Of a stretch of DNA of 43,054 bases, positions 1 to 43,054 are shown one piece after another. Under the pieces are notes generated by a model. That model was given only the letters and a program-made list of their open reading frames with translations, had not been told where the DNA came from and ran no database searches. Origin of the DNA: a virus; the IMG/VR virus record IMGVR_UViG_3300018432_000566, positions 1-43,054 of that record. One strand, written 5' to 3'. The translations under genes and the position numbers were made by a program. Numbering within the stretch: position 1 is the first letter of the stretch; each line of letters opens with the position of its first letter.

Positions 1-861
1 TCACGCCGAGGTTGCGGCCGACGTGGTGGTCGCGGAGCGGGCGGTGCCGCGGTAGACGGGCGCCTTGCCGTCGAACTTCTCGGAGATGCGGCCGGTGATG
101 TCTCGAACCGCGTCCTCGAGGATCTTGTCGAGGTTGACGAGGTCGTAGCCCATCAGCAGCTCACCGCCACGGATGCGGTACCGCAGCTTCGCGGTCACCG
201 GCTGGGTCACCTCGCCGACGAACGTCGCCAGGACGAGACCGAACTCGGTCGGAACCTCCAGCTCGCCCTCCTGGCCCGCGCTCGCCTCGATGTCGGCCTC
301 GTACCGGAACCCGCGGGCGCCGTTGTCGAGCCGACGCGTCGACTTGAACGCGGCCGTCTCGGTGCCCTCGATCGACTGGACGATCTCGAGCAGCTCGGCA
401 CCGTCCGGGTTAGCGATGTCGAGCAGCGACCTGTCGATGTGCTCGGCGAACTCGAGCTGCTTGATGAACCGGCCGTTGAGCTTGAGCCAGCGCTCCCACT
501 CCGCAGACGGCTTCAGCGCGAGCTCGACGCGGTGGTCGCCCCAGCCCGCCTTCTCGGCGTTGTCGTTGAGGACCGCCACGACCGTCGCACCGGCGCTGCC
601 GCTGGACGTCTTGCCCTCGTCGACCCAGATCGTCGTTGCGCCCTCCTCGAGCAGACGATCGACGACCTCCATGAACGCGTCCACGGTCGACGGCTTGTAC
701 GTCGCCCGCGCCCGGTTCGGCACCGGGAGGAACTTCTCCAGGTCAACGACCCTGTGGGTCGCGTTGGCCGGGACGATGATCCCGTACTGCTTCGAGGGAT
801 CGAGCACCTCGGGCTCCGCGCCCATGAGCGCGTTGTCGATGACCGCCTGAGCGTCCGACAT
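1..861 (-). CDS. DUF2303 (YfdQ-like) phage protein
   Basis: A 286-residue protein that I recognise as the DUF2303/YfdQ family from its overall pattern: a basic, aromatic-rich middle followed by a beta-rich C-terminal half. The molecular function of the family is not established; members sit in early regions of temperate and lytic phages. The start ATG (859-861) shares one base with the stop of the gene before it (TGATG), so the two are probably translated together. The stop codon is exactly at bases 3-1, so the gene is complete. The last ~15 residues are a low-complexity Ala/Thr/Ser tail. The family call is from memory, not a search. Confidence 0.75.
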   Translation of the reverse strand: MSDAQAVIDNALMGAEPEVLDPSKQYGIIVPANATHRVVDLEKFLPVPNRARATYKPSTVDAFMEVVDRLLEEGATTIWVDEGKTSSGSAGATVVAVLNDNAEKAGWGDHRVELALKPSAEWERWLKLNGRFIKQLEFAEHIDRSLLDIANPDGAELLEIVQSIEGTETAAFKSTRRLDNGARGFRYEADIEASAGQEGELEVPTEFGLVLATFVGEVTQPVTAKLRYRIRGGELLMGYDLVNLDKILEDAVRDITGRISEKFDGKAPVYRGTARSATTTSAATSA

Positions 862-2576: not shown

Positions 2577-2815
2577 CAGGCGTTCCTCTCCGGCCGAAAC
2601 AGGTCGAGCGGGTCCTCGTACTGGAGCGCGCGAGCGAGCCGCGCCTGCGTCTCCATGTGCGGGTTGCGCACCCGGCCCTTCTCGATGTCGCGGATCGTCT
2701 TGCCGCTGACGCCCGACATGCGGCCGAGGGCGTCGATCGAGAGGTGCTTCCTGGCCCGAGCGCGAAGTAGATCGTGGTTCGGAGCGCCTGGCCGGGGGTT
2801 AGGTCCCTGTCGCAT
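2576..2815 (-). CDS. XRE-family helix-turn-helix regulator, first gene of left operon
   Basis: 79 residues with an XRE HTH at ~18-65. LLRARARKHLSIDALGRMSG is followed by VSGKTIRDIEKGRV, the turn and recognition helix. A short tail LFRPERNA follows. The ATG at 2815 has no Shine-Dalgarno sequence. It lies only a few bases after a -35/-10-like pair (TTGCAC at 2852-2847, TACGTT at 2829-2824), so the message may be leaderless. It faces the rightward XRE gene at 2910 across a region with repeated operator-like half sites, the layout of a phage genetic switch. Confidence 0.88.
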   Translation of the reverse strand: MRQGPNPRPGAPNHDLLRARARKHLSIDALGRMSGVSGKTIRDIEKGRVRNPHMETQARLARALQYEDPLDLFRPERNA

Positions 2816-2819
2816 TGAT

Positions 2820-2875
2820 CCGAAACGTATCAGAACGTTTGGAAACGTGCAACTTCGTTCGGAATGGTTCAGAAG
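2820..2875. promoter_or_regulatory. Divergent operator/promoter region with repeated AAACGT half-sites
   Basis: Between the divergent XRE genes lie AAACGT (2823-2828), its inverse ACGTTT (2835-2840) and AAACGT again (2843-2848). CCGAAACGT, TGGAAACGT and CGGAATGGT recur about every 20 bases, roughly two helical turns, and CAGAACG/CAGAAGC recurs about 35-40 bases apart. A leftward promoter TTGCAC-N17-TACGTT overlaps these half-sites. The arrangement suggests cooperative repressor binding that occludes the leftward promoter. Which HTH protein binds is unknown. Confidence 0.55.
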
Positions 2876-2909
2876 CTTCCGCCTCGGGTCAGCGAATCTC
2901 CTGGGTTAC

Positions 2910-3251
2910 GTGGCCTTCCCAGCAGACATCAAGCACCGCGTCCGAGCGGCGCGCGCCTACGGAGACCTGTCGCTCGACAACATGGCCGAGGCGGCGGAGA
3001 TCGGCCGATCAACGCTTATCCGCATCGAGACCGGCCGTCGACTTCCGAAGCGGGGCGAGCTGCGCGAGATCGCGATTGCAACTGGGCTGCCCTACGAGTT
3101 CTTTACTGCGGACTTGTCTCGGCTTCCCGAGCTGGCACCCGAAGCCGACCCAGTGGACCCGGCGTCGCTGCGCAACAGGCGTGATCGAATAGCTCAAGAA
3201 GATCGCCCCGCCGCCGGCCAGGAGGATGAGCCTCAGCACGGGTCAGGATGA
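2910..3251 (+). CDS. Rightward XRE-family regulator
   Basis: 113 residues from the GTG at 2910. The HTH spans ~5-60: IKHRVRAARAYGDLSLDNMA, then EAAEIGRSTLIRIETGRRLP, then LREIAIATGLPYEFFTADL, the classic XRE pattern. The last ~30 residues are polar and poorly conserved in style (RNRRDRIAQEDRPAAGQEDE). A longer reading back to 2847 or 2655 is possible but adds non-domain text, and no clear Shine-Dalgarno marks the start. Its 3' end overlaps a leftward ORF (3103-3342) by ~150 bases, so one boundary may be wrong. Probable CI- or Cro-like role. Confidence 0.8.
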   Translation: MAFPADIKHRVRAARAYGDLSLDNMAEAAEIGRSTLIRIETGRRLPKRGELREIAIATGLPYEFFTADLSRLPELAPEADPVDPASLRNRRDRIAQEDRPAAGQEDEPQHGSG

Positions 3252-4919: not shown

Positions 4920-5594
4920 CTAGGCAGGGACGACGTTGAGGACGCCGAGGACGAATGCCCGCGGCCGGGTGCGGTCGTAGACGCCGCCCCCGTTCGCCTG
5001 GCTGCCGCCGTTCGACGGGGACGTGTTGAACTCGCGGGTCGGGATCACACCGCCGCGCATCGGTCCTCGAGCCAGAGCGACGTGGTCGGCGCCCGTGCCG
5101 GGGGTGAAGTCCATGACGACGATCGCGCCCGGGTGCGCCTGCTCCGGCGCGACACGTCGGAGCACGTATCGGCGGCCGTCCTTGGCCGTGAACGTCTCGC
5201 CGTGGTAGCTGAGGATGTTCGGCGTGTAGACGGTGCCGTCAGGCAGCTTGAGCCCGGCGCCCTTGAGGTAGGACCAGATCACCCCGAGGCCGCAGTAGGG
5301 CTGGCCGACCATCCAGGTGAGCGCGCCGCCGGCCTTGACGACGTAGTCGATCATCGACTGGAGCCACGGGGCGCGGTTGTTGCTCTCGGTCTTGCCGAGC
5401 ATCGTGCCGGCGGCCTGGAGGGCGAGCTGGCCGGGCGGTGCCTCCGCTGCGCGGATCAGCTTGCGGCGGGTGGCGATGTTCTTCGCGGCCTTCGCGATCG
5501 CCACGCGGATCGCGTGGAACTTGCGGCGGCGGGCGCTCTGCTTCTTCAGCGCGCGACGCTGCGTCGCCTTGCGACGGTCGAGCTGGGACGGCAT
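4920..5594 (-). CDS. CHAP-domain endolysin
   Basis: 224 residues. The catalytic CHAP (cysteine, histidine-dependent amidohydrolase/peptidase) domain covers ~75-222. The nucleophile is likely Cys101 in GQPYCGLGVIWSYLKGAG and the base His171 in GADHVALARG, after the PGAIVVMDF strand. The family cleaves peptidoglycan stem peptides or crossbridges. The first ~50 residues are very basic and helical (LDRRKATQRRALKKQSARRR), with no signal peptide, so export would depend on a holin. It could bind envelope polymers. GGAGG lies 6 bases before the ATG. No separate cell-wall-binding domain is evident. Confidence 0.82.
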   Translation of the reverse strand: MPSQLDRRKATQRRALKKQSARRRKFHAIRVAIAKAAKNIATRRKLIRAAEAPPGQLALQAAGTMLGKTESNNRAPWLQSMIDYVVKAGGALTWMVGQPYCGLGVIWSYLKGAGLKLPDGTVYTPNILSYHGETFTAKDGRRYVLRRVAPEQAHPGAIVVMDFTPGTGADHVALARGPMRGGVIPTREFNTSPSNGGSQANGGGVYDRTRPRAFVLGVLNVVPA

Positions 5595-5703: not shown

Positions 5704-5895
5704 TCAGGCGTGCCGTTTTGCGGCGCTCGTGAGCGCGGGCCGTGCGCCGTTCGCGCGGCGCGGCATCTCGGCGCGACGGCGGGCGAGCGCTTGGCCGCGC
5801 CGGCCGAGGTCGGCCCAGAACGCGTCGGACTCCGCGCGGGCCTCAGCGAGGCGGGCTCGGTAGCGGCGCGTGCGGGCGCGGGACTCGTCGGCCAT
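5704..5895 (-). CDS. Small basic protein, possibly frameshifted
   Basis: 63 residues, Arg/Ala-rich and helical (ESRARTRRYRARLAEARAES). The start at 5895 overlaps the end of the collagen-like gene by one base. Right after its stop, another frame runs to 5596 and encodes the protein-like text TPDDVDRLASLRRP followed by AALRAEWGSEREANPDP, with no usable start of its own. A single +1 slip or a one-base error at the AAAA run near 5714 would fuse the two. Function unknown. Confidence 0.5.
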   Translation of the reverse strand: MADESRARTRRYRARLAEARAESDAFWADLGRRGQALARRRAEMPRRANGARPALTSAAKRHA

Positions 5896-6503
5896 CAGTC
5901 GAAGGTGCAGGCGAACGTGCCGTCGCCATTCGGGGTACAGGTCGCGGTCGCGCCTGAGAGCGATCCGGGCGGCCCCTGTGGGCCGGCAGGACCGGGCGGG
6001 CCGGCTGGACCCGCAGGCCCGGTCGGGCCCTGCGCGCCTTGGACGCCATCGGTGCCGTGCTCGCCCTTCTCGCCAGCAGCGCCATCGCGGCCAGCGCTGC
6101 CCGGCACGCCGGACTCTCCCGCCGCGCCGACAGGGCCAGCAGGGCCGGCCGCCCCGCGCGCGCCGCCGGGGCCACGGGTGCCGCGCGGGCCGCGCAAGCC
6201 GGTCGCGCCGGCCAGGCCAGCGAGACCGGACTCGCCGCGCTCGCCCTTGAGCACCTTCACGATGCCCTTCGATCGCTGGTCGGCGCGGCCTGCCGTGTCG
6301 GCCGCCTCATCAGCGGTCGACTGCGCGGCGCCGGAGTCGCGCGAGCTCGCGTCGACCGCGAGGTAGATCGCCAGGCCGAGCAAGACGGCCATGAGGCCAA
6401 CGGCGTACCAAAGCCGCCGCTCGCGGCGAAGCACACCGTCTAGAAGGTTGCGCACCGGCTGGTCTGCGTCGTCGTGTGCGTCGCGTATGTCGTCAGCAGT
6501 CAC
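5895..6503 (-). CDS. Membrane-anchored collagen-like protein
   Basis: 202 residues: a charged cytoplasmic N-terminus, one transmembrane helix at ~32-51 ([20 protein letters not shown]), a ~30-residue polar stalk, then 31 uninterrupted Gly-X-Y triplets (residues ~87-179). The C-terminal knob [14 protein letters not shown] has two cysteines that could pair. Charge distribution predicts that the collagen stalk faces outward. Phage collagen repeats are usually on tail fibres; a membrane-anchored copy beside lysis genes is unusual. The GTG start overlaps the stop of the 6500-6781 gene by 4 bases. Confidence 0.8.
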
Positions 6504-6830: not shown

Positions 6831-9800
6831 TCAGCGCCGGTTGCGCGCGCGCACGTCGAGCCGCGCGAAGAGGCCGGTCAACGAGTTCGTGACCGTGTCG
6901 AGCTTGAGCCGCAGCGTCTTGCTGGCGTGGCTGTAGCTCTTGTCGACGATCTTCCACGGCTGAGGATCGGGGAAGTCGACGAGGTCGATCATGTCGCCGG
7001 AGCGGCACGCCCAGACCGGCACCGGCCCGATCGTCGGGTGCTCGAGCTGCGGGACATGGCCCTCGCCGAGCGGACGGATGGTGAGGTCGCCGGAGCGCTG
7101 TGGCAGCTTCTGGTCGTTCATCCAGACGTAGCCGATCTGCACGGCCGCGTGGTCGAGCAGCGGGTGCCCGACCGTCAGCTCCTCCCAGCGCTCCTCGCCG
7201 TGGCGGTTCAGCTCGTTCGTCGGCGACGTGTCGACCAGCAGCGCGCTCTCAAAATCGCAGCCGGAGCCGGGCGGCCCGACCGTGCGGCTATGACCGTCCG
7301 GGGTCTCGTAGGCGACGACGACGCCGTTGACGAGGCTGGTCGCCTGGCGGCCGGCGGGGGTCCAGTGCGCGCCGCCCTGGATCCTCGCGATCCACGGGGC
7401 GGTGCTGTCCCACGGCTGCCACCAGAAGGTGTCGTCCTCCCAGACCTCCCAGCGCCATTGGAACCAGGCGTTGATTTCCTCGACGGCCTGGAGGCGCTTG
7501 AAGCCGCTGTCGAGCCAGGCAAGCTGGTCGATGACAAAGCTGGTGTTGTCGCGGATCGAGCCGCTGGGGCCGGTGGTGTAGTTCAGGCCAGCGGCACCGA
7601 CGATGTGCGCGAGCGCGTCGTGGCCGTAGACGCCGGGCAGAGCGCCCGCGATGTCGCGCAGCGTGAGCCCGTGGTCGCCGTAGAGCGCGAGGGCGTTGTA
7701 GCGCTCCTGCGTGCCGACCGTGGGCGTCGTGTCGCCGGAGGCGAAGACCTGGAGGTAGACACGTCGGCGAGCCGTCGTGAGCGCAAGCGTTCGCAGCGTG
7801 TCGTCCAGCGTCAGGTTGTAGGTCTCGATCGCGGGCGGCGCCGTGTCGGAGTCAGTCGCGCGAAGCGCCGGGACGTTGAAGGCCGTGAAGGCTCCCGTGC
7901 GCGCTCCCCGATAGCCGAACTTGCCGACCTTCACACCGGCGGGCATCTCCTGCCACGCCTGGCCGCGCCAGCCGTTGTGGAGCAGCTCGCCGGGGACATC
8001 GAAGACCAGGCCGCCCGCGACAAGGCCGACCTGGATTTTCTGCTGATCCTGGCCGTCATCAGCGATCTGCTTCTTGCGCCACAGCGGCGGGTCGCCCCAG
8101 CGCGACATATCCTGGTCGACGATCAGCTCGCGGTACGGCTTCGCGACCAGCTTCACGCGCCGCCCGATCGCGTTGACACCGATCGACACATCGTCACCGA
8201 GCGCCGAGGGGAAGTGCTCTTGCTGACCCTCGAAGGCGCTGCGCCCGAGCGGCTTGGTGCGGCCGTGGACGGTGAGCTTGTCGACTAGGGCGAGGTCGGG
8301 CCAGTCGCGCCGCGGGTCGCGCAGGAGCGTGAACGACGCGTCAGCGAAGCCGCCCGGCGAGGTGTCGTGGATCTCCAGGTCTTGCGGGATGCCGTCCGCG
8401 TCGGGGTCGTCCTCGGCCCACCGCGAGATGTTGCCGTTGGCGTGCTCGGCGATGACGTAGAGGCGATCGTCGACCGGCTCGCCGGTCACGGCCGCCGCGG
8501 GGACGGACTCGGGGGTCGTGAACGTCTGGTCCTCGCCGTAGATGATCGGCCCCAGCGGGGCGTGGCGGGCTACCGCGACGAAGTGGTAGGTGGCCCCCGG
8601 CGTCAGGCCGGAGATCACGGCCGAGATGTCGACCGGATCTTCGCCGGCCGCCAGCGGATTCTGGGCGGCGAAGACGACCGTGCCGTAGCTCGTCGTCGGG
8701 CCGTAGAGGAAGGCGACGAGGGTGGCCGGCCCGTTGGGGTTGACGACGCCGTGCAGCTTGGCATTGCGCGGGTTGACCAGACTCGCAGCGTCGGTCTCGA
8801 CGCTCGGAGGCTGGACGGCCGTCAGCGTCCCGGCCGTATCCGTCTCCCCCGCCTGGCCCAGCGTGGCGCCCGTCGCAGCCGGCGCCGGGGTAAGCGTCCC
8901 GCCGCTATCGCTCTCCGCTCCCTGCTCGAGGTCTATGTCCGTCGCCCCTGGCGTCGGTGAGAAAGCCGCGGCGGCGTCTGACTCAGTCGCCTGCTCGAAG
9001 GGGACGTCAATGGTCGCGTCAGGCGACAGCTCGCCCGCGGCGTCGGACTCGCCGGCCTGCTGGAGGGTGCCGTCGATCGGTCCTGGCGCCGGGGTTGCCT
9101 CGCCTGCGCTGTCGGTCTCTGCGGCTTGCTCCAGCTCGCCGCTCGGGGCCTCCGCGTCGGGGGTGCTCTCGCCGGCCGTGTCGACCTCTTGGGCCTGCTC
9201 CAGGCCAACGCCAACGGCGCCGGGACCGGGCGTGAGCGACCCTGCTGAGTCGGTCTCCTGGGCCTGCTCGAGGTCGACGTCCTGGTCGGCGGCGCTCGGC
9301 CCGAACATTCCCGCATGGGTGATGGCCTGGCGGCGGTCGCGGGCGACGACGTTCGGATAGAGCGCGAAGGCGTGCTCGATCCCGTCGAGGAAGTTCGTAG
9401 TGCCGGCGTCGGCGGCGGCGAGGCCGGCGGCGATCGCGGTGTTGGTGAGCGTCTGGTTGGTGACGGTGCCGAGGACATCAACACCGTCGAGCTCCATGAA
9501 GTGCCCACCGGCACCGTTCTTGCCGACCCACAGGTCGTGCCAGCGACCGAGGATTACGGGGACGGTCGACTTGACGATGTCGCCGACGCTGTTGCGCCGG
9601 AACAGGACCTTGTTGTCGGCCGAGTCCGTGCGGACGATCGGGCCGTTGGCGCCCTTGTCGTAGAGACAGTGGAAGACGCCGAGCGCGTCGACCTTGAAGC
9701 GGACGTGGATCGACAGCGTGTCGCCGACGTTGAACTCGGAGCGGTGGGCAATCTGGACCTTGTCGTCGACACCATCGAACGCCACGCCGGTACTGGCGTC

Positions 9801-10613
9801 GTTGGGTATGCCGATCGCCTGGCCGAAAGTGACCCCGCCTGAGTAGACGCCGGAGGCCCCGCCGACCTCATCGACGGCCGCCGTACCGGATGTCTCGTCG
9901 AGCATCAGCGCGACGTTCGGACTGTCGGCCATCAGCTCGTCGCGGAGCGAGAGGCCGCTCGGCACGACCTCGCGTAGCGCGACTGCCGCGGCGCCGGCCT
10001 CCTCGGTCGTGACCGTCCAGCCCGCGGTGAACCCGCCGCCGGCATCGACCGACGTCGACCGGATGAACGAGGCGGTCTGCGAGCCGAAGTCGAACTCGGC
10101 CTGCTCGGTCATCCCGGAGCCGGCCGCGATCGACCCCACCGCGTCCTGGCCCGAGTGGAGCGCCGCGTAGGTCAGCGTGCCGACGCTCGTGCCGGTGTTC
10201 ATCACCAGCGCCGGGTTGGCGCCCGTCGACTGGTCGAGCCAGGCGATGTCCTCGATCGCGATCTTGCTGCCCGCCACGTCCGAGACGACGGTGTCGACCC
10301 TGGCCGTGCGCGACGACCCGGTCGAGTTCGTGTCGACGAGCACGGTCTGCGCCCCCGCCGGGGGATCGGCGAGGAAGTAGATGTAGATCGCCCCGTCCTC
10401 TGACCCGGTCGGGTGCAGGAACGGCGACCCGAGCACCTCGACCATCGGGACGCCGCCATAGGTGACACCGTCGACCTGATCGGTGGCGTTCGTGTTCTGC
10501 ACGACGCGCACAACCGCGCCGGTGCCGCCAACAGCGGACCCGCGGGTGTGCGTCGCCGACAGATCGCCGGTGCCCGACCCGAGGTCGGTGCTGGCGTCGT
10601 GAGCTATCGCCAT
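6831..10613 (-). CDS. Large tail-tip/receptor-binding protein with LamG, repeat and Fn3-like domains
   Basis: 1260 residues in a mosaic. Residues ~1-215 are a beta-rich N-terminal domain. ~233-420 are a LamG/concanavalin-type jelly roll (GVAFDGVDDKVQIAHRSEF; LSIHVRFKV; GRWHDLWVGKNG), a likely glycan binder. ~448-606 hold seven ~23-residue repeats of the form LEQAxETDxAGxxTPxP. ~607-708 are an Fn3-like domain (LHGVVNPNGPATLVAFLYGP ... ISGLTPGATYHFVAVARHA ... DQTFTTP). ~715-1260 are a tail-hub-like part with Trp-rich strands, similar in style to siphovirus tail-tip proteins. It is probably the main receptor-binding or baseplate-hub protein. Confidence 0.75.
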   Translation of the reverse strand: MAIAHDASTDLGSGTGDLSATHTRGSAVGGTGAVVRVVQNTNATDQVDGVTYGGVPMVEVLGSPFLHPTGSEDGAIYIYFLADPPAGAQTVLVDTNSTGSSRTARVDTVVSDVAGSKIAIEDIAWLDQSTGANPALVMNTGTSVGTLTYAALHSGQDAVGSIAAGSGMTEQAEFDFGSQTASFIRSTSVDAGGGFTAGWTVTTEEAGAAAVALREVVPSGLSLRDELMADSPNVALMLDETSGTAAVDEVGGASGVYSGGVTFGQAIGIPNDASTGVAFDGVDDKVQIAHRSEFNVGDTLSIHVRFKVDALGVFHCLYDKGANGPIVRTDSADNKVLFRRNSVGDIVKSTVPVILGRWHDLWVGKNGAGGHFMELDGVDVLGTVTNQTLTNTAIAAGLAAADAGTTNFLDGIEHAFALYPNVVARDRRQAITHAGMFGPSAADQDVDLEQAQETDSAGSLTPGPGAVGVGLEQAQEVDTAGESTPDAEAPSGELEQAAETDSAGEATPAPGPIDGTLQQAGESDAAGELSPDATIDVPFEQATESDAAAAFSPTPGATDIDLEQGAESDSGGTLTPAPAATGATLGQAGETDTAGTLTAVQPPSVETDAASLVNPRNAKLHGVVNPNGPATLVAFLYGPTTSYGTVVFAAQNPLAAGEDPVDISAVISGLTPGATYHFVAVARHAPLGPIIYGEDQTFTTPESVPAAAVTGEPVDDRLYVIAEHANGNISRWAEDDPDADGIPQDLEIHDTSPGGFADASFTLLRDPRRDWPDLALVDKLTVHGRTKPLGRSAFEGQQEHFPSALGDDVSIGVNAIGRRVKLVAKPYRELIVDQDMSRWGDPPLWRKKQIADDGQDQQKIQVGLVAGGLVFDVPGELLHNGWRGQAWQEMPAGVKVGKFGYRGARTGAFTAFNVPALRATDSDTAPPAIETYNLTLDDTLRTLALTTARRRVYLQVFASGDTTPTVGTQERYNALALYGDHGLTLRDIAGALPGVYGHDALAHIVGAAGLNYTTGPSGSIRDNTSFVIDQLAWLDSGFKRLQAVEEINAWFQWRWEVWEDDTFWWQPWDSTAPWIARIQGGAHWTPAGRQATSLVNGVVVAYETPDGHSRTVGPPGSGCDFESALLVDTSPTNELNRHGEERWEELTVGHPLLDHAAVQIGYVWMNDQKLPQRSGDLTIRPLGEGHVPQLEHPTIGPVPVWACRSGDMIDLVDFPDPQPWKIVDKSYSHASKTLRLKLDTVTNSLTGLFARLDVRARNRR
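8795..9272 (-). repeat. Seven ~69-bp tandem repeats in tail-tip gene
   Basis: Seven in-frame units of about 69 bases (22-24 codons), each beginning like LEQAQETDSAG, LEQAAETDSAG, LQQAGESDAAG or FEQATESDAAA and followed by a Pro/Thr/Ala linker. Copies have diverged at DNA level, so they are an old protein repeat rather than a recent slippage product. They probably form an extended spacer between the LamG and Fn3-like domains. Confidence 0.8.
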
Positions 10614-10655: not shown

Positions 10656-11126
10656 CTAGCTCGCGACGAAAGCGCCGCCGGACGCGACCACGACGTTGAT
10701 GTCGCCGCCGTTCGGGCTCACGACGAACGGGCTGCAGGTGATCGGCACGATCGCCGAGTCCGCGCCGCCCGTGCTGTCGGAGTCGTAGCCGAGGAAGAGG
10801 TGCGTCCAGTCGTCGCCGGCCGCGATGTCCTCGAAGACCTGATCGGGAAAGTCGACGAACGCGATGTCGCTGGTGTCGTTGACCGTCACCGTGATCGAGT
10901 CGGCGTTGTCGAGCACGATCCGGGCATAGCCGCCGTTGGTCGCCTCGGCCGTGTTGCCATCGGCGATGACGGCCGCAAGCGTGTCGAGATCCTTGAGCGT
11001 CGCGTCGGTCGCCGTCGAGACGAGCGCCACGAGCACGAACACCGCGTTCGTCGGGTCATTGTTGTTGATGCGGTTGGCGAGCTCGTTGGCTCGCCCCTTC
11101 GCGATGTTGAACGTGAAAACGGCCAT
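10656..11126 (-). CDS. Putative tail or virion structural protein
   Basis: 156 residues, no membrane segment. An N-terminal helix (FNIAKGRANELANRINNNDP) leads into a beta-rich, acidic body (ATNGGYARIVLDNADSITVT; FVDFPDQVFEDIAAGDDWTH), ending in SPNGGDINVVVASGGAFVAS. This composition is typical of small virion proteins that decorate the tail tip. It sits between the two largest tail-tip genes, with an unrelated rightward gene inserted immediately upstream. I do not recognise a named family. Confidence 0.65.
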   Translation of the reverse strand: MAVFTFNIAKGRANELANRINNNDPTNAVFVLVALVSTATDATLKDLDTLAAVIADGNTAEATNGGYARIVLDNADSITVTVNDTSDIAFVDFPDQVFEDIAAGDDWTHLFLGYDSDSTGGADSAIVPITCSPFVVSPNGGDINVVVASGGAFVAS

Positions 11127-11144
11127 GTCGGGGTACGTCCTTTC

Positions 11145-11207
11145 TTTCCCTAATGGGAAAGTCGGGTTACAGTGGGCCGCTCAGACAGCGGCTTAGGAGG
11201 CAATTCG
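11145..11207 (+). promoter_or_regulatory. Rightward promoter/operator and leader of the secreted-protein gene
   Basis: TTTCCC-TAAT-GGGAAA (11145-11160) is a perfect palindrome overlapping a -35-like TTCCCT. TACAGT follows 16 bases later (11168-11173). The spacer shares GGAAA and TCGGG blocks with the element at 3525-3552. A hairpin GCCGCT-5-AGCGGC (about 11177-11193) lies in the leader, and GGAGG (around 11196-11200) precedes the GTG at 11208 by a good distance. Confidence 0.55.
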
Positions 11208-11921
11208 GTGAAGCAGCGGATCAGCAGGCACTACGCGAACGTCGTCGCGACGATCGCTCTGTTCGCGGTGCTGACGGGGGTAGGCGCGGCGGCGGCCGGC
11301 AAGGTCCAGATCGTCACTGGCAAGCAGATCAAGAACGGGTCGATCTCCACCAAGGATCTGGCCAACAACAGCGTCCGCGCCGCCGACATCAAGAACGGTG
11401 GCGTCACCTCGGCCGACATCGGGGTCAATCAGGTCAAGCGCTCCGACATCGCCTCCAACCAGATCACTAGCGACGAGATCGCCCCAGGCGAGGTCACGCC
11501 CGAGGAGGTCACGCTGCCAGAGCCCGCAAGCTTCAAGCTCAACGGGAACTGGTCCGCGATGGTCAACCAGCACGCGGCCAAGAAGGTCGTAACGCTCGGG
11601 ACCTACGCGAAGCAGGACGCTACAAGCGCCCTGAAGGTTGACTGGGTCGGGCTCGCCAAGTCATTCGAGTTTGGGTGCATCTACGAGCTGCGCGTGGACG
11701 GGATCTCCGAGGGCGCCGGCACCGCCTATGCCTACGACACGACGGCGCTGAGCGTCTCGGCCTCGTCGCTGTTCACGGGCCTGGGTGCCGGCGACCACGC
11801 GGTCGAGGTTTGGGCGAGAACGGCCTGGGGCGATCCGGCTGGTACCGAGGTGCGTTGCGCTGTGGGCGTGCCCGAGGTTGCGCTGCCTCAGTCGGTAGTC
11901 GTGGCCGAGATCGTCAACTGA
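11208..11921 (+). CDS. Secreted repeat protein, moron-like cargo gene
   Basis: 237 residues from GTG 11208 with a clear GGAGG site. A Sec signal peptide (~1-35: VKQRISRHYANVVATIALFA, then VLTGVGAAAAG) precedes ~80 residues of short imperfect repeats (KNGSISTKDLANNSVRAADI; GVTSADIGVNQVKRSDI; NQITSDEIAPGE). A ~120-residue beta-rich domain follows (FEFGCIYELRVDGISEGAG, ...HAVEVWARTAWG). The repeat and signal style is common in secreted proteins of Thermoleophilia/Solirubrobacterales, so host capture is likely. It is the only rightward gene in the tail region, with its own promoter and terminator-like hairpin. Confidence 0.8.
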   Translation: MKQRISRHYANVVATIALFAVLTGVGAAAAGKVQIVTGKQIKNGSISTKDLANNSVRAADIKNGGVTSADIGVNQVKRSDIASNQITSDEIAPGEVTPEEVTLPEPASFKLNGNWSAMVNQHAAKKVVTLGTYAKQDATSALKVDWVGLAKSFEFGCIYELRVDGISEGAGTAYAYDTTALSVSASSLFTGLGAGDHAVEVWARTAWGDPAGTEVRCAVGVPEVALPQSVVVAEIVN

Positions 11922-11925
11922 GCGC

Positions 11926-11949
11926 GAGCGCGTCTCCGCTGGGGCGCTC
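11926..11949. terminator. Possible hairpin between convergent genes
   Basis: GAGCGC (11926-11931) pairs with GCGCTC (11944-11949) around a 12-base loop, just after the stop of the rightward cargo gene and before the end of the leftward 845-residue tail gene. There is no long U tract, so a Rho-independent terminator is only possible. If it stopped leftward transcription it would cut off the tail-tip and lysis genes. Confidence 0.35.
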
Positions 11950-11955
11950 CTTGGC

Positions 11956-14493
11956 CTAGGCGGGGTCGGGTACGGCGTAGTAGCGCGGCGTGACGAAGAT
12001 GTCGGCTTCCAGGTCGCTGGGTGTGGCGGGGACGCCCATCAGGTCAGGGTCGGAGGGTGACGCGACGATCGCGAGGCGGTTCTTGCGGTTCTCGACTCCG
12101 GCGGGTTCGAGCCGCATGTAGTCGCCGCGTGGGACGAGCGGCTCGTAGACACCCGACGCGGCCCCTCCGCCCAAGGACTCGCGCTCGACGCTGGACGAGC
12201 CCAGCTCGAGCGTGCAGTCGGAGAACAGGACAGCGGCCCGCGGCGGCACCCAGACGGCCACGTTGTCGTAATTGCGGGTGACGGCCGTCGCGCCGGTCTT
12301 GGCGTCGTAGAAGCCGACCTTGCCGGACGCGAGCGTGGCAGCCAAGATCAGCGACATGTCGCGGCCGGCGAGCAGGAGCCTTGGCAGTCCGCCGGTCGCT
12401 ACGCCCCAGAGCCAGTAGCGGCCGAGTCGGTCAGCGTGCAGCCAGATCGTGCGCCAGTCGATGTAGCTCGGCACGGCTACCGCGCCGAGGGTCTCGTAGG
12501 TGCCGGCGACGCGCTTGCCGACGAAGGCGAAATCGGCGGCGGTAGTCGTGAGGTAGCCGCCCATCAACCAGTTGTTCGCATCGGTGTACCGGGCGAGCGC
12601 CGACTGCAGGAGCTGCTGCGAGCTACCTACATCGAGGACCGAGCGCTTCGCCGCGAGCGACACGACCACGTCGGAGAAGGTGTTAGTCCCGGCAACGGCG
12701 TAACGGCCGGTCAGCGTGTCGGCGTCGGAGACCTCCCCTCGCTGGGCAGTGTGGCCCGTCGCCTCGACCGCGATGTCCGTCGCGTCGCCGGTAGTCGCCC
12801 ACGTCTGCCCCGTGGCGGCGGTGTAGTAGACGGTGACCCGGACGTGGTCAATCTGGGCGCGACTGCCGTTGAGCATCGACGCCGAAATCGCGATGCCGAA
12901 GCCGCTCGCGTTGATCTGGGCCTGAGTCCAGGTGTTCGACCAGAGATCGTTCGGGGAGCCATAGCTTCTGTAGATCAGCGCGCCCGCCGGCCACAAGCCG
13001 CCCGCGGCGTGGTTGCCGACACCTTGAATGGCTCCGGCTTTGACCAAGAAGATGTGGTTGTCGACGATCTGGTCGCCGAGACCGTCGGCGCCGCGCTTGA
13101 TCTCGGCGACGATGCCGTCAACCGTCGCGCCCACCGGCAGCGAAAAGCCGAAGTTCGTTGCCTTTAGGTAGTGGCTGATGCCAGGCGATCCGCCGCTGCT
13201 GGTGTCCGCCAGCGCGCCATCCTCTGCCAGCACCGACGAGGGGTTGGCCCAGGTGAGGGCGCCGGTACCGGCGTCGTCGGCAGCCGTGCCGGGGTTGCGC
13301 GGCCCAGACACGCTTGCAGCCGCGGCGATCGACTTGCCGTGCAGGTTGCCAGAAGCCTGGTCGAACTCGTCGCGGATCGCGACGCTCAGCGGAGTGGAGA
13401 TGGATGCCTCGGCGGACACGGTGCCGTTGCCCTCGGCCACGGGGATCACGCCAATGTGGGCGACGTCGATGTCGTCGCCGACGATGGTCGAGCGTGCGGC
13501 GACGGTGCCGATCCAGTGGTGCGGACCCTGCGAGGCGGGGCGTAGGAAGACCTGGCCGAGGCTGACGAGCACCAGCTCGCCGGCTCGATCGTGGCCTACC
13601 GGGAAGATGAGCGCTGAGTTCTCGGTGCGGCGGGTGCCCGCGCCGTACTCGAGCTTGACCTCTACCTGGCCGGTGTTCCCGGTCGGGAGGTGCAGCCACA
13701 CGAGGATCTCATAGATCCCGGCGTGGGTCAGGTGGCCGCCGGCCGCGAGCTCGGTCGAGTGGACGGCCCGCCAGTTCGGCGTCAGCGTGCCCTGTCGGAT
13801 GACCGGAACCGACACGCCCTGGATCGTCGCGGTCGTCGCGGTTGCGCCGTCGAGCGGCGTTAGGTCTTGCGCGGGGTAGTAGGGCTGCGCCGTCTCGGCG
13901 TCGGAGTACTGGCGCGACTCCCAACCCCAACGGACGCGCCACTGATCGTCGGGCGACGTCAACCGCACGTCGGCGAGCGCCCGGGCGGTGCCGGGCACGT
14001 CCTCGACGACCACGTCGAGCACTGGTAGCGGGCTGCCGTCGAAGGTGAATGTGCCGGCGTTGTAGCGCTCGCCGCGGCCGAGCGGCTTGCACTCGGCCTC
14101 GATCGTCACCTCTGCGAAATCGCGCTGCACGAAGCGCCAGTCGGTCGGCAGGCCGACGATCTTGCAGCCGACGACGTCGAAGTCGATGAACGACTCGTCG
14201 GGCAGCACGCGCCGCCACACGCCGCCCTCGGACGAGAGCTTGCCGACCTTCTGCTCGATGAGCAGCAGCCGGTCGCGCATCGTGGCGCCGTAGACCTTGA
14301 CCTTGCAGGTGATCGTCCGGTTCGGCAGCTTGCGGGCGGCGGGCAGCGTGCCCTCGACGGCGATGCTCGTCGCGCCTACCAGCTCGGGTGCCGGCGGGGT
14401 GTAGTCGACCTCGAGGATCTCCACGCTGCCGGGAGCGTCGTGCAGCTCGACGCTCGCGGCCTCGGGATCAAGGATTGCGTTCTCGAATGGCAA
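11956..14493 (-). CDS. Distal-tail-like protein with extended beta-rich C-terminus
   Basis: 845 residues. The first ~140 (VEILEVDYTPPAPELVGATS, ITCKVKVYGATMRDRLLLIE, ...RDFAEVTIEAECKPLGRG) resemble distal tail (Dit) proteins, which form the ring below the tail tube. Later parts look like beta-sandwich modules (WRVRWGWESRQYSD; HYLKATNFGFSLPVGATVDG; RYTDANNWLMGGYLTT) seen in carbohydrate-binding tail proteins. Its place directly after the tape measure is the standard position for Dit. The large size suggests an evolved Dit with added receptor-binding modules. Confidence 0.7.
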   Translation of the reverse strand: MPFENAILDPEAASVELHDAPGSVEILEVDYTPPAPELVGATSIAVEGTLPAARKLPNRTITCKVKVYGATMRDRLLLIEQKVGKLSSEGGVWRRVLPDESFIDFDVVGCKIVGLPTDWRFVQRDFAEVTIEAECKPLGRGERYNAGTFTFDGSPLPVLDVVVEDVPGTARALADVRLTSPDDQWRVRWGWESRQYSDAETAQPYYPAQDLTPLDGATATTATIQGVSVPVIRQGTLTPNWRAVHSTELAAGGHLTHAGIYEILVWLHLPTGNTGQVEVKLEYGAGTRRTENSALIFPVGHDRAGELVLVSLGQVFLRPASQGPHHWIGTVAARSTIVGDDIDVAHIGVIPVAEGNGTVSAEASISTPLSVAIRDEFDQASGNLHGKSIAAAASVSGPRNPGTAADDAGTGALTWANPSSVLAEDGALADTSSGGSPGISHYLKATNFGFSLPVGATVDGIVAEIKRGADGLGDQIVDNHIFLVKAGAIQGVGNHAAGGLWPAGALIYRSYGSPNDLWSNTWTQAQINASGFGIAISASMLNGSRAQIDHVRVTVYYTAATGQTWATTGDATDIAVEATGHTAQRGEVSDADTLTGRYAVAGTNTFSDVVVSLAAKRSVLDVGSSQQLLQSALARYTDANNWLMGGYLTTTAADFAFVGKRVAGTYETLGAVAVPSYIDWRTIWLHADRLGRYWLWGVATGGLPRLLLAGRDMSLILAATLASGKVGFYDAKTGATAVTRNYDNVAVWVPPRAAVLFSDCTLELGSSSVERESLGGGAASGVYEPLVPRGDYMRLEPAGVENRKNRLAIVASPSDPDLMGVPATPSDLEADIFVTPRYYAVPDPA

Positions 14494-41177: not shown

Positions 41178-43054
41178 GCGTCGAGCGCTTCCCTGATCCG
41201 GGCGACGATCAGCGCCATGACGGGCGGGGTGACGCCGTTGCCGTACTGGGCCATCTGCTCGCGCTTGTTGCCGAGGACGATGTACTCGGAGCCGTCCGGG
41301 TGGTTAGCCATCTGCATGGTGTTTGCGATCTCGTGGAGCGCGAACATGCGAAAGCGGCAGGCGTCGATCTCCTCGTCGCCCCACGCCAGCGCGAAGGACT
41401 CCCGGCTCGTCTGCGTCGGGCCGGGCTGCTCGAGCGCGGGGGTCGAGTCATCGCGCCAGTTCCCGCCCGCGGGCACGACGAGCGCCAGGCGGTCGCGTGT
41501 CGACAGCGTCGCTGACGGGTCGCGCTCGGCGATGTCGGCGGTGCCCGTCCGCGTGTAGGGAATCACCAGCGACTGGTGGCAGCCAGTCGTGAGCGTGCGG
41601 ATCGGCTCGTGGGCCGGGGTACACATCTCGGCACCGCCGCTGTTGTTGCGCATGATGACGCCGTGGTGCTGGCCGCCAGCGCGCACGGTGTGAACGGGCG
41701 CGTCGGGCGACCGGACGCCGCCGTTGGCCTGGAGCTCGACGACGCCGAGCTTGCCGCCGCTCGTGACGGTCGCGGCCGGCTCCTCGTCCGCGATCTTCGG
41801 GACGTTGTTCGCCATGTTCGACAGCACGACGGCAAGGCCGCCCTCGGTGCGCAGCGTCGGTGACGGCGTCTCACCCGCCGGCTTCGGGACGTGGTTCTCG
41901 GTGTTCGCCATGACCAGCGCGCCGCGCGTGGTGGTCGTCTGCGTAGGCGTGGGCGCCCGGTAAGCGTCGCGGGGGTCGACCTTGCCCATCGGCGGGACGA
42001 CCATCGCCCGGTCGAGCGTCGCGTGAACGGTGTCCGCCGGGTGCGTCGAAGCGTCGCGTGCGCGGTTACCGGGCGTGCGCTCGAAGGTGTTGCCAGCGAC
42101 GGGGAAGACCATCGCTGCCTCCGGCAACTCGGCGAGATCGACGAGCGGCAGCGTAAGCGGCTTCGGGTGTCCGCGCTCGAAGCCGATCTCGAACGGTTCG
42201 CGCATCAGCCGCTCGAGGCCGCGGCGGATGCGCTCGCGGGTCGCGTCCGCCAACGGGCGCTTGCGATCGCCGATCAGCTCGGCGGGCAGCGTCCAGTCGA
42301 TCGCGGTCGACGCCGGCATCGCACCAGGCAGCACGGTCCCGAAGCACTCCGGGCACGAGTAGAGGTACTGCGGCCCGTAGCGGCCCCACGGGCGGCGATC
42401 GGGCCGCTTCCAAGTCTGCCGGCCGTCGACCAGCTTCTCGCAGCTCGGGCACCAGGACACCGGCTCGAAGCGCAGGTTCGGCCGGCGGATCCCCTTGCGC
42501 CAGAAGACGACGTACATCCGATCGCGCGACTGCGGGACCGGCGGTGCGAACATCGAGTTGAAGAAGACGATCTCGTGCTCGTAGCCGAGCGCCCGCATCG
42601 CCATCAGCCAGGCGTCGAACAGCGAGCCGTCGTCGTTCGGGCCCCACTTGAAAGCGTCTACGACGTTCTCGACGACGATCGCCTTGTACTCGTGCGCCTC
42701 GGCGAACCGAATGACGTCCCACATCGTCGCGCGGGAGCGCTCCTGCTCCGCGTCGCTCGACGGCCCGTCGTCGAACAGCGAGCCTGCCTGCGGCTTACGG
42801 CGACGAGCGCCCTTCGCGAGCGAGTGGTTCGTACACTCGGGCGACGCAAGCAGGATGTCCGTCGAGCGGTAGCGGCGCGGGTTGGTGTCCGAGACGTTCG
42901 CGCAGTCGTGGTCCGCGTCGGGGAAGTTCGTGTTGTGCGTCTCGACGGCTCGGTCCCAGTGGTTCAGCCCCAGCCGAAGCGTCGTCCCGGCCACGGTCGC
43001 GCCGATCGACGAGCCGCCAGCACCACAGAAGAGATCGGTGACGGTCAGGCTCAT
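41174..43054 (-). CDS. C5 cytosine DNA methyltransferase with zinc insert and repeated modules
   Basis: 626 residues, longer than usual (~350-450). Motif I DLFCGAGGSS (7-16); motif IV SPECTNHS with nucleophile Cys74; motif VI ENV (129-131); motif VIII QSRDRMYVVFW; a CPSC ... CPEC zinc pair (~203-242); an eightfold repeat ([ST]PTxTTxxxxALVx) at ~360-590; and motif X YGNGVTPPVM near the end. Adds methyl to C5 of cytosine using SAM, probably protecting phage DNA. The start is the last base of the window. No restriction partner is seen. Same operon as the HD hydrolase. Confidence 0.87.
   Translation of the reverse strand: MSLTVTDLFCGAGGSSIGATVAGTTLRLGLNHWDRAVETHNTNFPDADHDCANVSDTNPRRYRSTDILLASPECTNHSLAKGARRRKPQAGSLFDDGPSSDAEQERSRATMWDVIRFAEAHEYKAIVVENVVDAFKWGPNDDGSLFDAWLMAMRALGYEHEIVFFNSMFAPPVPQSRDRMYVVFWRKGIRRPNLRFEPVSWCPSCEKLVDGRQTWKRPDRRPWGRYGPQYLYSCPECFGTVLPGAMPASTAIDWTLPAELIGDRKRPLADATRERIRRGLERLMREPFEIGFERGHPKPLTLPLVDLAELPEAAMVFPVAGNTFERTPGNRARDASTHPADTVHATLDRAMVVPPMGKVDPRDAYRAPTPTQTTTTRGALVMANTENHVPKPAGETPSPTLRTEGGLAVVLSNMANNVPKIADEEPAATVTSGGKLGVVELQANGGVRSPDAPVHTVRAGGQHHGVIMRNNSGGAEMCTPAHEPIRTLTTGCHQSLVIPYTRTGTADIAERDPSATLSTRDRLALVVPAGGNWRDDSTPALEQPGPTQTSRESFALAWGDEEIDACRFRMFALHEIANTMQMANHPDGSEYIVLGNKREQMAQYGNGVTPPVMALIVARIREALDA

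What the first reader, a model, noticed from the sequence alone, without database searches (positions are those of the whole stretch)
11145..11949. Host-like secreted repeat protein gene, on the opposite strand, inside the leftward tail operon
The only rightward gene between 4.1 and 43 kb. It has its own promoter-like palindrome, GGAGG site, Sec signal peptide and a following hairpin. The repeat style is that of Thermoleophilia secreted proteins (from memory). Late leftward transcription would run antisense through it, so it may be silenced in lytic growth and expressed at other times, as expected of a moron for host surface change or superinfection exclusion.
Basis: partly seen in the sequence, partly recalled or inferred. 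Interest (0 to 1): 0.8.

Follow-up and report, generated by a model that had tools for sequence, protein, structure and literature searches.

The report
Phage gene for exported surface fibre
A bacterial virus carries, backwards inside its tail genes, a gene for a fibre-like protein that is probably sent out of the host cell and ends in a trimer-type binding head; the same gene recurs in nine other viruses, which suggests it changes the surface of infected cells rather than building the virus particle.

Summary
The gene is real: 11208-11921 (+), 237 aa, the only strongly coding rightward ORF in the region, inside a leftward late operon. It encodes a signal peptide, six decapeptide repeats and a C-terminal domain of about 130 aa with two invariant cysteines. 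AlphaFold2 gives that domain a confident beta-sandwich (pLDDT about 90) that matches the TNF/C1q fold: Pgp3, a Bdellovibrio fibre tip, TNF-like lectins, BclA, a lactococcal phage receptor-binding head. Nine full-length homologues (mostly 36-44% identical) were found, all in other IMG/VR viral contigs. In eight of the ten contigs the gene runs against, and converges on, the tail or lysis genes, at three different places; in two it sits in another region with its neighbours. Other small exported proteins, including lipoproteins, often lie just upstream. Four contigs carry an integrase. This is a phage-borne accessory (moron) family for an exported fibre. Lysogenic surface change is the best explanation; receptor masking (superinfection exclusion) and adhesion remain undecided. 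'Host-like' was not shown: the bacterial-genome scans were insensitive. The promoter, terminator and antisense-silencing claims are unproven. A new variant of a known kind.

The parts
11208..11921 (+). Exported fibre gene, 237 aa, GTG start
11195..11200 (+). Ribosome-binding site AGGAGG, 7 nt before the start codon
   Evidence: direct reading
11208..11297 (+). Signal peptide, residues 1-30 (predicted cleavage AAA|G)
   Evidence: hydropathy and charge; A/V-x-A readable at the same place in homologues
11328..11507 (+). Six decapeptide repeats, residues 41-100 (pattern I/L..N/G.I/V...D/E), presumed stalk
   Evidence: homologues have 5-8 units; low pLDDT in the model
11517..11915 (+). TNF/C1q-like head domain, residues 104-236, with invariant Cys157 and Cys217
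11144..11161 (.). Perfect palindrome CTTTCCC-TAAT-GGGAAAG between the divergent g156 and fibre genes (possible operator; function not shown)
11920..11949 (.). Weak hairpin between convergent stop codons (possible bidirectional terminator; not significant)
11956..14493 (-). Tail protein, 845 aa, convergent with the fibre gene; homologue in G014 (39% over 872 columns)
10656..11126 (-). Conserved phage protein of 156 aa (phrog_26662), divergent from the fibre gene
6831..10613 (-). Tail protein, 1260 aa; its C-terminal half is homologous to the tail gene that borders the fibre gene in L018, L026 and L028 and lies nearby in L029

Best explanation
The gene is an independently placed accessory gene (moron) of a probably temperate phage of an actinobacterium. 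Its product is exported by the Sec pathway, the signal peptide is removed, and three chains are thought to join through the decapeptide stalk and the TNF/C1q-like head into a short fibre on or outside the host envelope. There the head binds a ligand, most likely a cell-surface glycan. I think it is made in the lysogen and most likely helps to mask the phage's own receptor (superinfection exclusion; about 0.35 on its own), with adhesion of the lysogen as the close alternative. Shown here: the gene, the comparative signal peptide, the repeats, the conserved cysteine pair, the predicted head fold, recurrence in ten viral contigs, and usual opposition to the late genes. Inferred: trimerisation, disulfide, surface location, expression in lysogeny, ligand, and the exclusion role.
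For: Full-length homologues in nine other viral contigs. A signal peptide and A/V-x-A site are readable in the nine aligned members, with two invariant cysteines in the exported part. The head model has pLDDT about 90 and matches trimeric adhesive folds: Pgp3 CTD Z 12.4, Bd2734 tip Z 12.4 (rmsd 2.5 over 121 residues), PLTL lectin 11.4, BC2L-C lectin 11.0, Tuc2009 RBP head 9.4. The gene is convergent with tail or lysis genes in 8 of 10 contigs, at three different places. Exported or membrane companions lie upstream in L018 and L026-L031 (lipobox in L028 and L029). Integrases or serine recombinases in 4 of the 10 contigs. Literature precedent: exclusion lipoproteins within structural gene clusters in mEpimmI phages (PMC11893012), and T5 Llp next to the receptor-binding gene pb5 (PMC9586334).
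Against: No promoter or terminator stands out. The window itself has no integrase by two profile families, and its XRE-type ORF has weak coding support. In L032 and L049 the gene is co-oriented with its neighbours. Nothing shows which ligand the head binds or that it trimerises. No expression data.
Confidence: 0.65

Rival explanations
1. A lysogenic-conversion adhesin: the fibre helps the lysogen stick to soil surfaces or other cells, and has nothing to do with excluding other phages.
For: The head's nearest solved folds include lectins and adhesive fibre tips; Bdellovibrio TNF-like tips bind glycans (PMC10769870).
Against: The frequent placement beside the tail-tip gene and beside small exported lipoproteins fits exclusion at least as well.
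Confidence: 0.3
2. It is a virion or late protein (a receptor-binding fibre or a soluble fibre released at lysis), with an N-terminus that only looks like a signal peptide.
For: The repeats match phage tail-fibre families (phrog_892 E 3.5e-8) and the head resembles the Tuc2009 RBP head; it lies among tail genes.
Against: Charged-hydrophobic-AxA N-terminus in homologues, and opposite strand to the late genes in 8 of 10 contigs.
Confidence: 0.12
3. A host secreted-protein gene recently captured by this phage.
For: The N-terminal YANVVAT...VTGKQI style resembles actinobacterial secreted proteins (recalled from memory, not tested). The gene's GC (65.5%) equals the lowest among the main genes tested.
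Against: Divergent homologues in nine other viral contigs and none confirmed in 84,980 species genomes, although that scan was insensitive.
Confidence: 0.08

Closest known systems
Superinfection-exclusion lipoproteins Llp (T5), Cor (T1-like) and Lpp (mEpimmI phages)
   Same: Small exported phage proteins encoded next to receptor-binding or structural genes; several related contigs here have small exported lipoproteins in the same place.
   Different: This protein has no lipobox, is larger, and has a repeat stalk and a TNF/C1q-like head; no exclusion activity has been shown.
Bdellovibrio mosaic adhesive trimer (MAT) fibres
   Same: Signal peptide, fibre architecture, TNF-like tip (Bd2734 is a joint best structural match).
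   Different: MATs are about 1,000 aa, have a conserved beta-rich domain right after the signal peptide and belong to a predator bacterium; this one is 237 aa, with decapeptide repeats directly after the signal peptide.
BclA, Pgp3 and C1q-like trimeric proteins
   Same: C-terminal TNF/C1q-like fold at the end of a trimeric stalk.
   Different: The stalk here is of decapeptide repeats, not collagen or coiled coil; sequence identity is only about 10-15%.
Phage tail fibres with decapeptide-type repeats (phrog_892, phrog_28766)
   Same: The same kind of repeat.
   Different: Signal peptide, independent orientation, and a full-length family of its own.

Membership tests
Phage moron / lysogenic conversion gene | Unit placed independently of the surrounding operon (own orientation, variable insertion point) | tested here: met
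   Opposite to the late genes in 8 of 10 contigs, at three different places
Phage moron / lysogenic conversion gene | Own promoter and terminator | tested here: inconclusive
   Palindrome present, but no promoter or terminator consensus
Phage moron / lysogenic conversion gene | Expressed from the prophage | not testable with these tools
   Needs RNA from a lysogen
Superinfection-exclusion lipoproteins (Llp/Cor/Lpp) | Lipobox and lipid anchor | tested here: not met
   No lipobox in the window protein; present only in companions in L028 and L029
Superinfection-exclusion lipoproteins (Llp/Cor/Lpp) | Blocks infection when expressed | not testable with these tools
   Needs an infection assay
Bdellovibrio MAT superfamily | Conserved beta-rich domain of about 130 aa right after the signal peptide | tested here: not met
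   Decapeptide repeats follow the signal peptide directly; definition from PMC10769870
TNF/C1q-like fold | Jelly-roll head domain | tested here: met
   AF2 residues 107-236, Z up to 12.4
TNF/C1q-like fold | Homotrimer | not testable with these tools
   Only monomer prediction was available
Pfam Decapeptide PF25296 | Score over the curated cut-off | tested here: not met
   13.8 bits against 45
Thermoleophilia secreted repeat proteins | Full-length homologues in host chromosomes | tested here: inconclusive

The most novel reading that the evidence does not exclude
Temperate phages of actinobacteria export a miniature trimeric receptor-binding-like fibre to the cell surface so that the lysogen's receptors are occupied by a phage-made decoy: a fibre-based superinfection exclusion system unlike the known lipoprotein ones.
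Probability: 0.2. Interest if true: 0.75.

Novelty: new variant of a known kind. Interest (0 to 1): 0.5.

Why it matters
The protein had only sub-threshold matches in Pfam and NCBIfam, and its PHROGs matches are weak, repeat-level ones to tail fibres. It appears to be a family of phage-encoded exported fibres with a TNF/C1q-like head in probable phages of soil actinobacteria, where very little is known about how prophages alter the cell surface. If the exclusion reading holds, it would be a kind of superinfection exclusion built on a trimeric binding fibre, and the ten sequences give a ready set for testing.

Tried and rejected
Single-protein scans of viral contigs with the fibre or the 845-aa tail protein found no relatives; the relatives came from a TerL search, a YANVVAT DNA pattern and then alignments. 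Two scans of bacterial genomes gave nothing, and relatives cannot be drawn for a virus record, so the host test failed for technical reasons. Named phages and plasmids gave only repeat-level matches. No relative of the head was found elsewhere in the window or in the loci held when this was run, apart from a marginal E 0.026 hit in L013, so there is no evidence that it copies the phage's own receptor-binding protein. A structure for the neighbour g156 failed (pLDDT 34). No solved structure is related by sequence. The family tree is unresolved, with the window as a long branch.

Full report
What is there. The window is an IMG/VR viral record of 43,054 bases with a leftward late region: TerL, portal, protease, major head protein, tape measure and tail proteins. 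Inside it, between the 845-aa tail gene (11956-14493, -) and the 156-aa gene (10656-11126, -), lies one rightward gene, 11208-11921, with a good ribosome-binding site. Codon scoring ranks it far above every other + strand ORF in the window. The palindrome (11144-11161) is real and unique in the window, but it was not found in the other loci held at that point and no promoter consensus is present. The trailing hairpin is not significant.

The protein. It has a signal peptide, six ten-residue repeats and a C-terminal domain. Homologues keep the A/V-x-A cleavage motif, have 5-8 repeats, and keep two cysteines in the head. AlphaFold2 on six sequences gives low confidence for the signal peptide and repeats, but about 90 for residues 107-236, a ten-stranded sandwich. 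Foldseek and VIA-align place this with TNF/C1q-like trimeric heads: Pgp3 CTD, Bd2734 tip, PLTL and BC2L-C lectins, BclA, C1q and the Tuc2009 RBP head. A fold match does not show function.

A phage family. A full-length homologue (43%) came first from a second viral contig, G014 (L016/L018); further scans gave eight more. With the window that is ten viral contigs. A further contig, G013, the nearest by TerL, carries only the N-terminal and repeat module fused to collagen repeats, also opposite to tail genes. In the window and L029 the gene sits between homologues of the two tail genes; in L018, L026 and L028 after the second; in L027, L030 and L031 after the lysis genes; in L032 and L049 in another region, co-oriented with its neighbours. 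So the gene has changed place while usually keeping opposition to the late genes. Directly upstream lie small exported or membrane proteins in L018 and L026-L031, with lipoboxes in L028 and L029. HTH_20-type regulators lie nearby in L027, L030 and L032 (only the one in L032 passes Pfam's cut-off).

Lifestyle. Tyrosine integrases occur in the contigs of L027, L030 and L031, and a serine recombinase in G014; none was found in the window, G021 or G022 (G022 was tested for the tyrosine family only), nor in the three short contigs. The window and G014 each begin at a stop codon and end at a start codon of leftward ORFs, as trimmed proviruses do; this is an inference.

Function. Exclusion proteins encoded beside receptor-binding or structural genes are known in T5 and mEpimmI phages (PMC9586334, PMC11893012), and TNF-like tips of Bdellovibrio fibres bind glycans (PMC10769870). 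The best-supported account is an exported accessory fibre that changes the lysogen's surface, perhaps by masking the receptor. Trimerisation, ligand, expression stage and exclusion are all inferred.

Host. TerL matches phages of Mycobacterium, Gordonia and Streptomyces, so an actinobacterial host is likely; Thermoleophilia was not tested successfully.

Noticed in passing
window 1-3 and 43052-43054: The record begins exactly at the stop codon and ends exactly at the ATG of leftward ORFs; G014 also begins TCA and ends CAT. This looks like provirus trimming at gene boundaries.
   Followed up: partly
window 5895-6503 (-): Collagen-repeat protein with an N-terminal hydrophobic segment, next to the endolysin (4920-5594); a comparable membrane/collagen-like ORF lies in L015 306-809.
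   Followed up: no
L015 1468-1995: Fusion of the same N-terminal/repeat module to collagen repeats, opposite to the tail genes: the C-terminal part seems to be swappable.
   Followed up: partly
L018 2317-2751; L026 2899-3609 and 3606-3995; L027 7691-7981; L028 7637-7888; L029 6564-6962; L030 7591-8001; L031 7597-8004: Small exported or membrane proteins directly upstream of the fibre gene; those scanned (L018, L026, L030) match no family. Candidates for exclusion proteins.
   Followed up: partly
window 10656-11126 (-): The 156-aa protein (phrog_26662) recurs in 12 viral contigs whose held stretches share none of the window tail genes tested; in L008 two copies lie in tandem.
   Followed up: partly
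window 2655-3251 (+): ORF with an XRE-type helix-turn-helix, a possible repressor, with weak coding support.
   Followed up: partly
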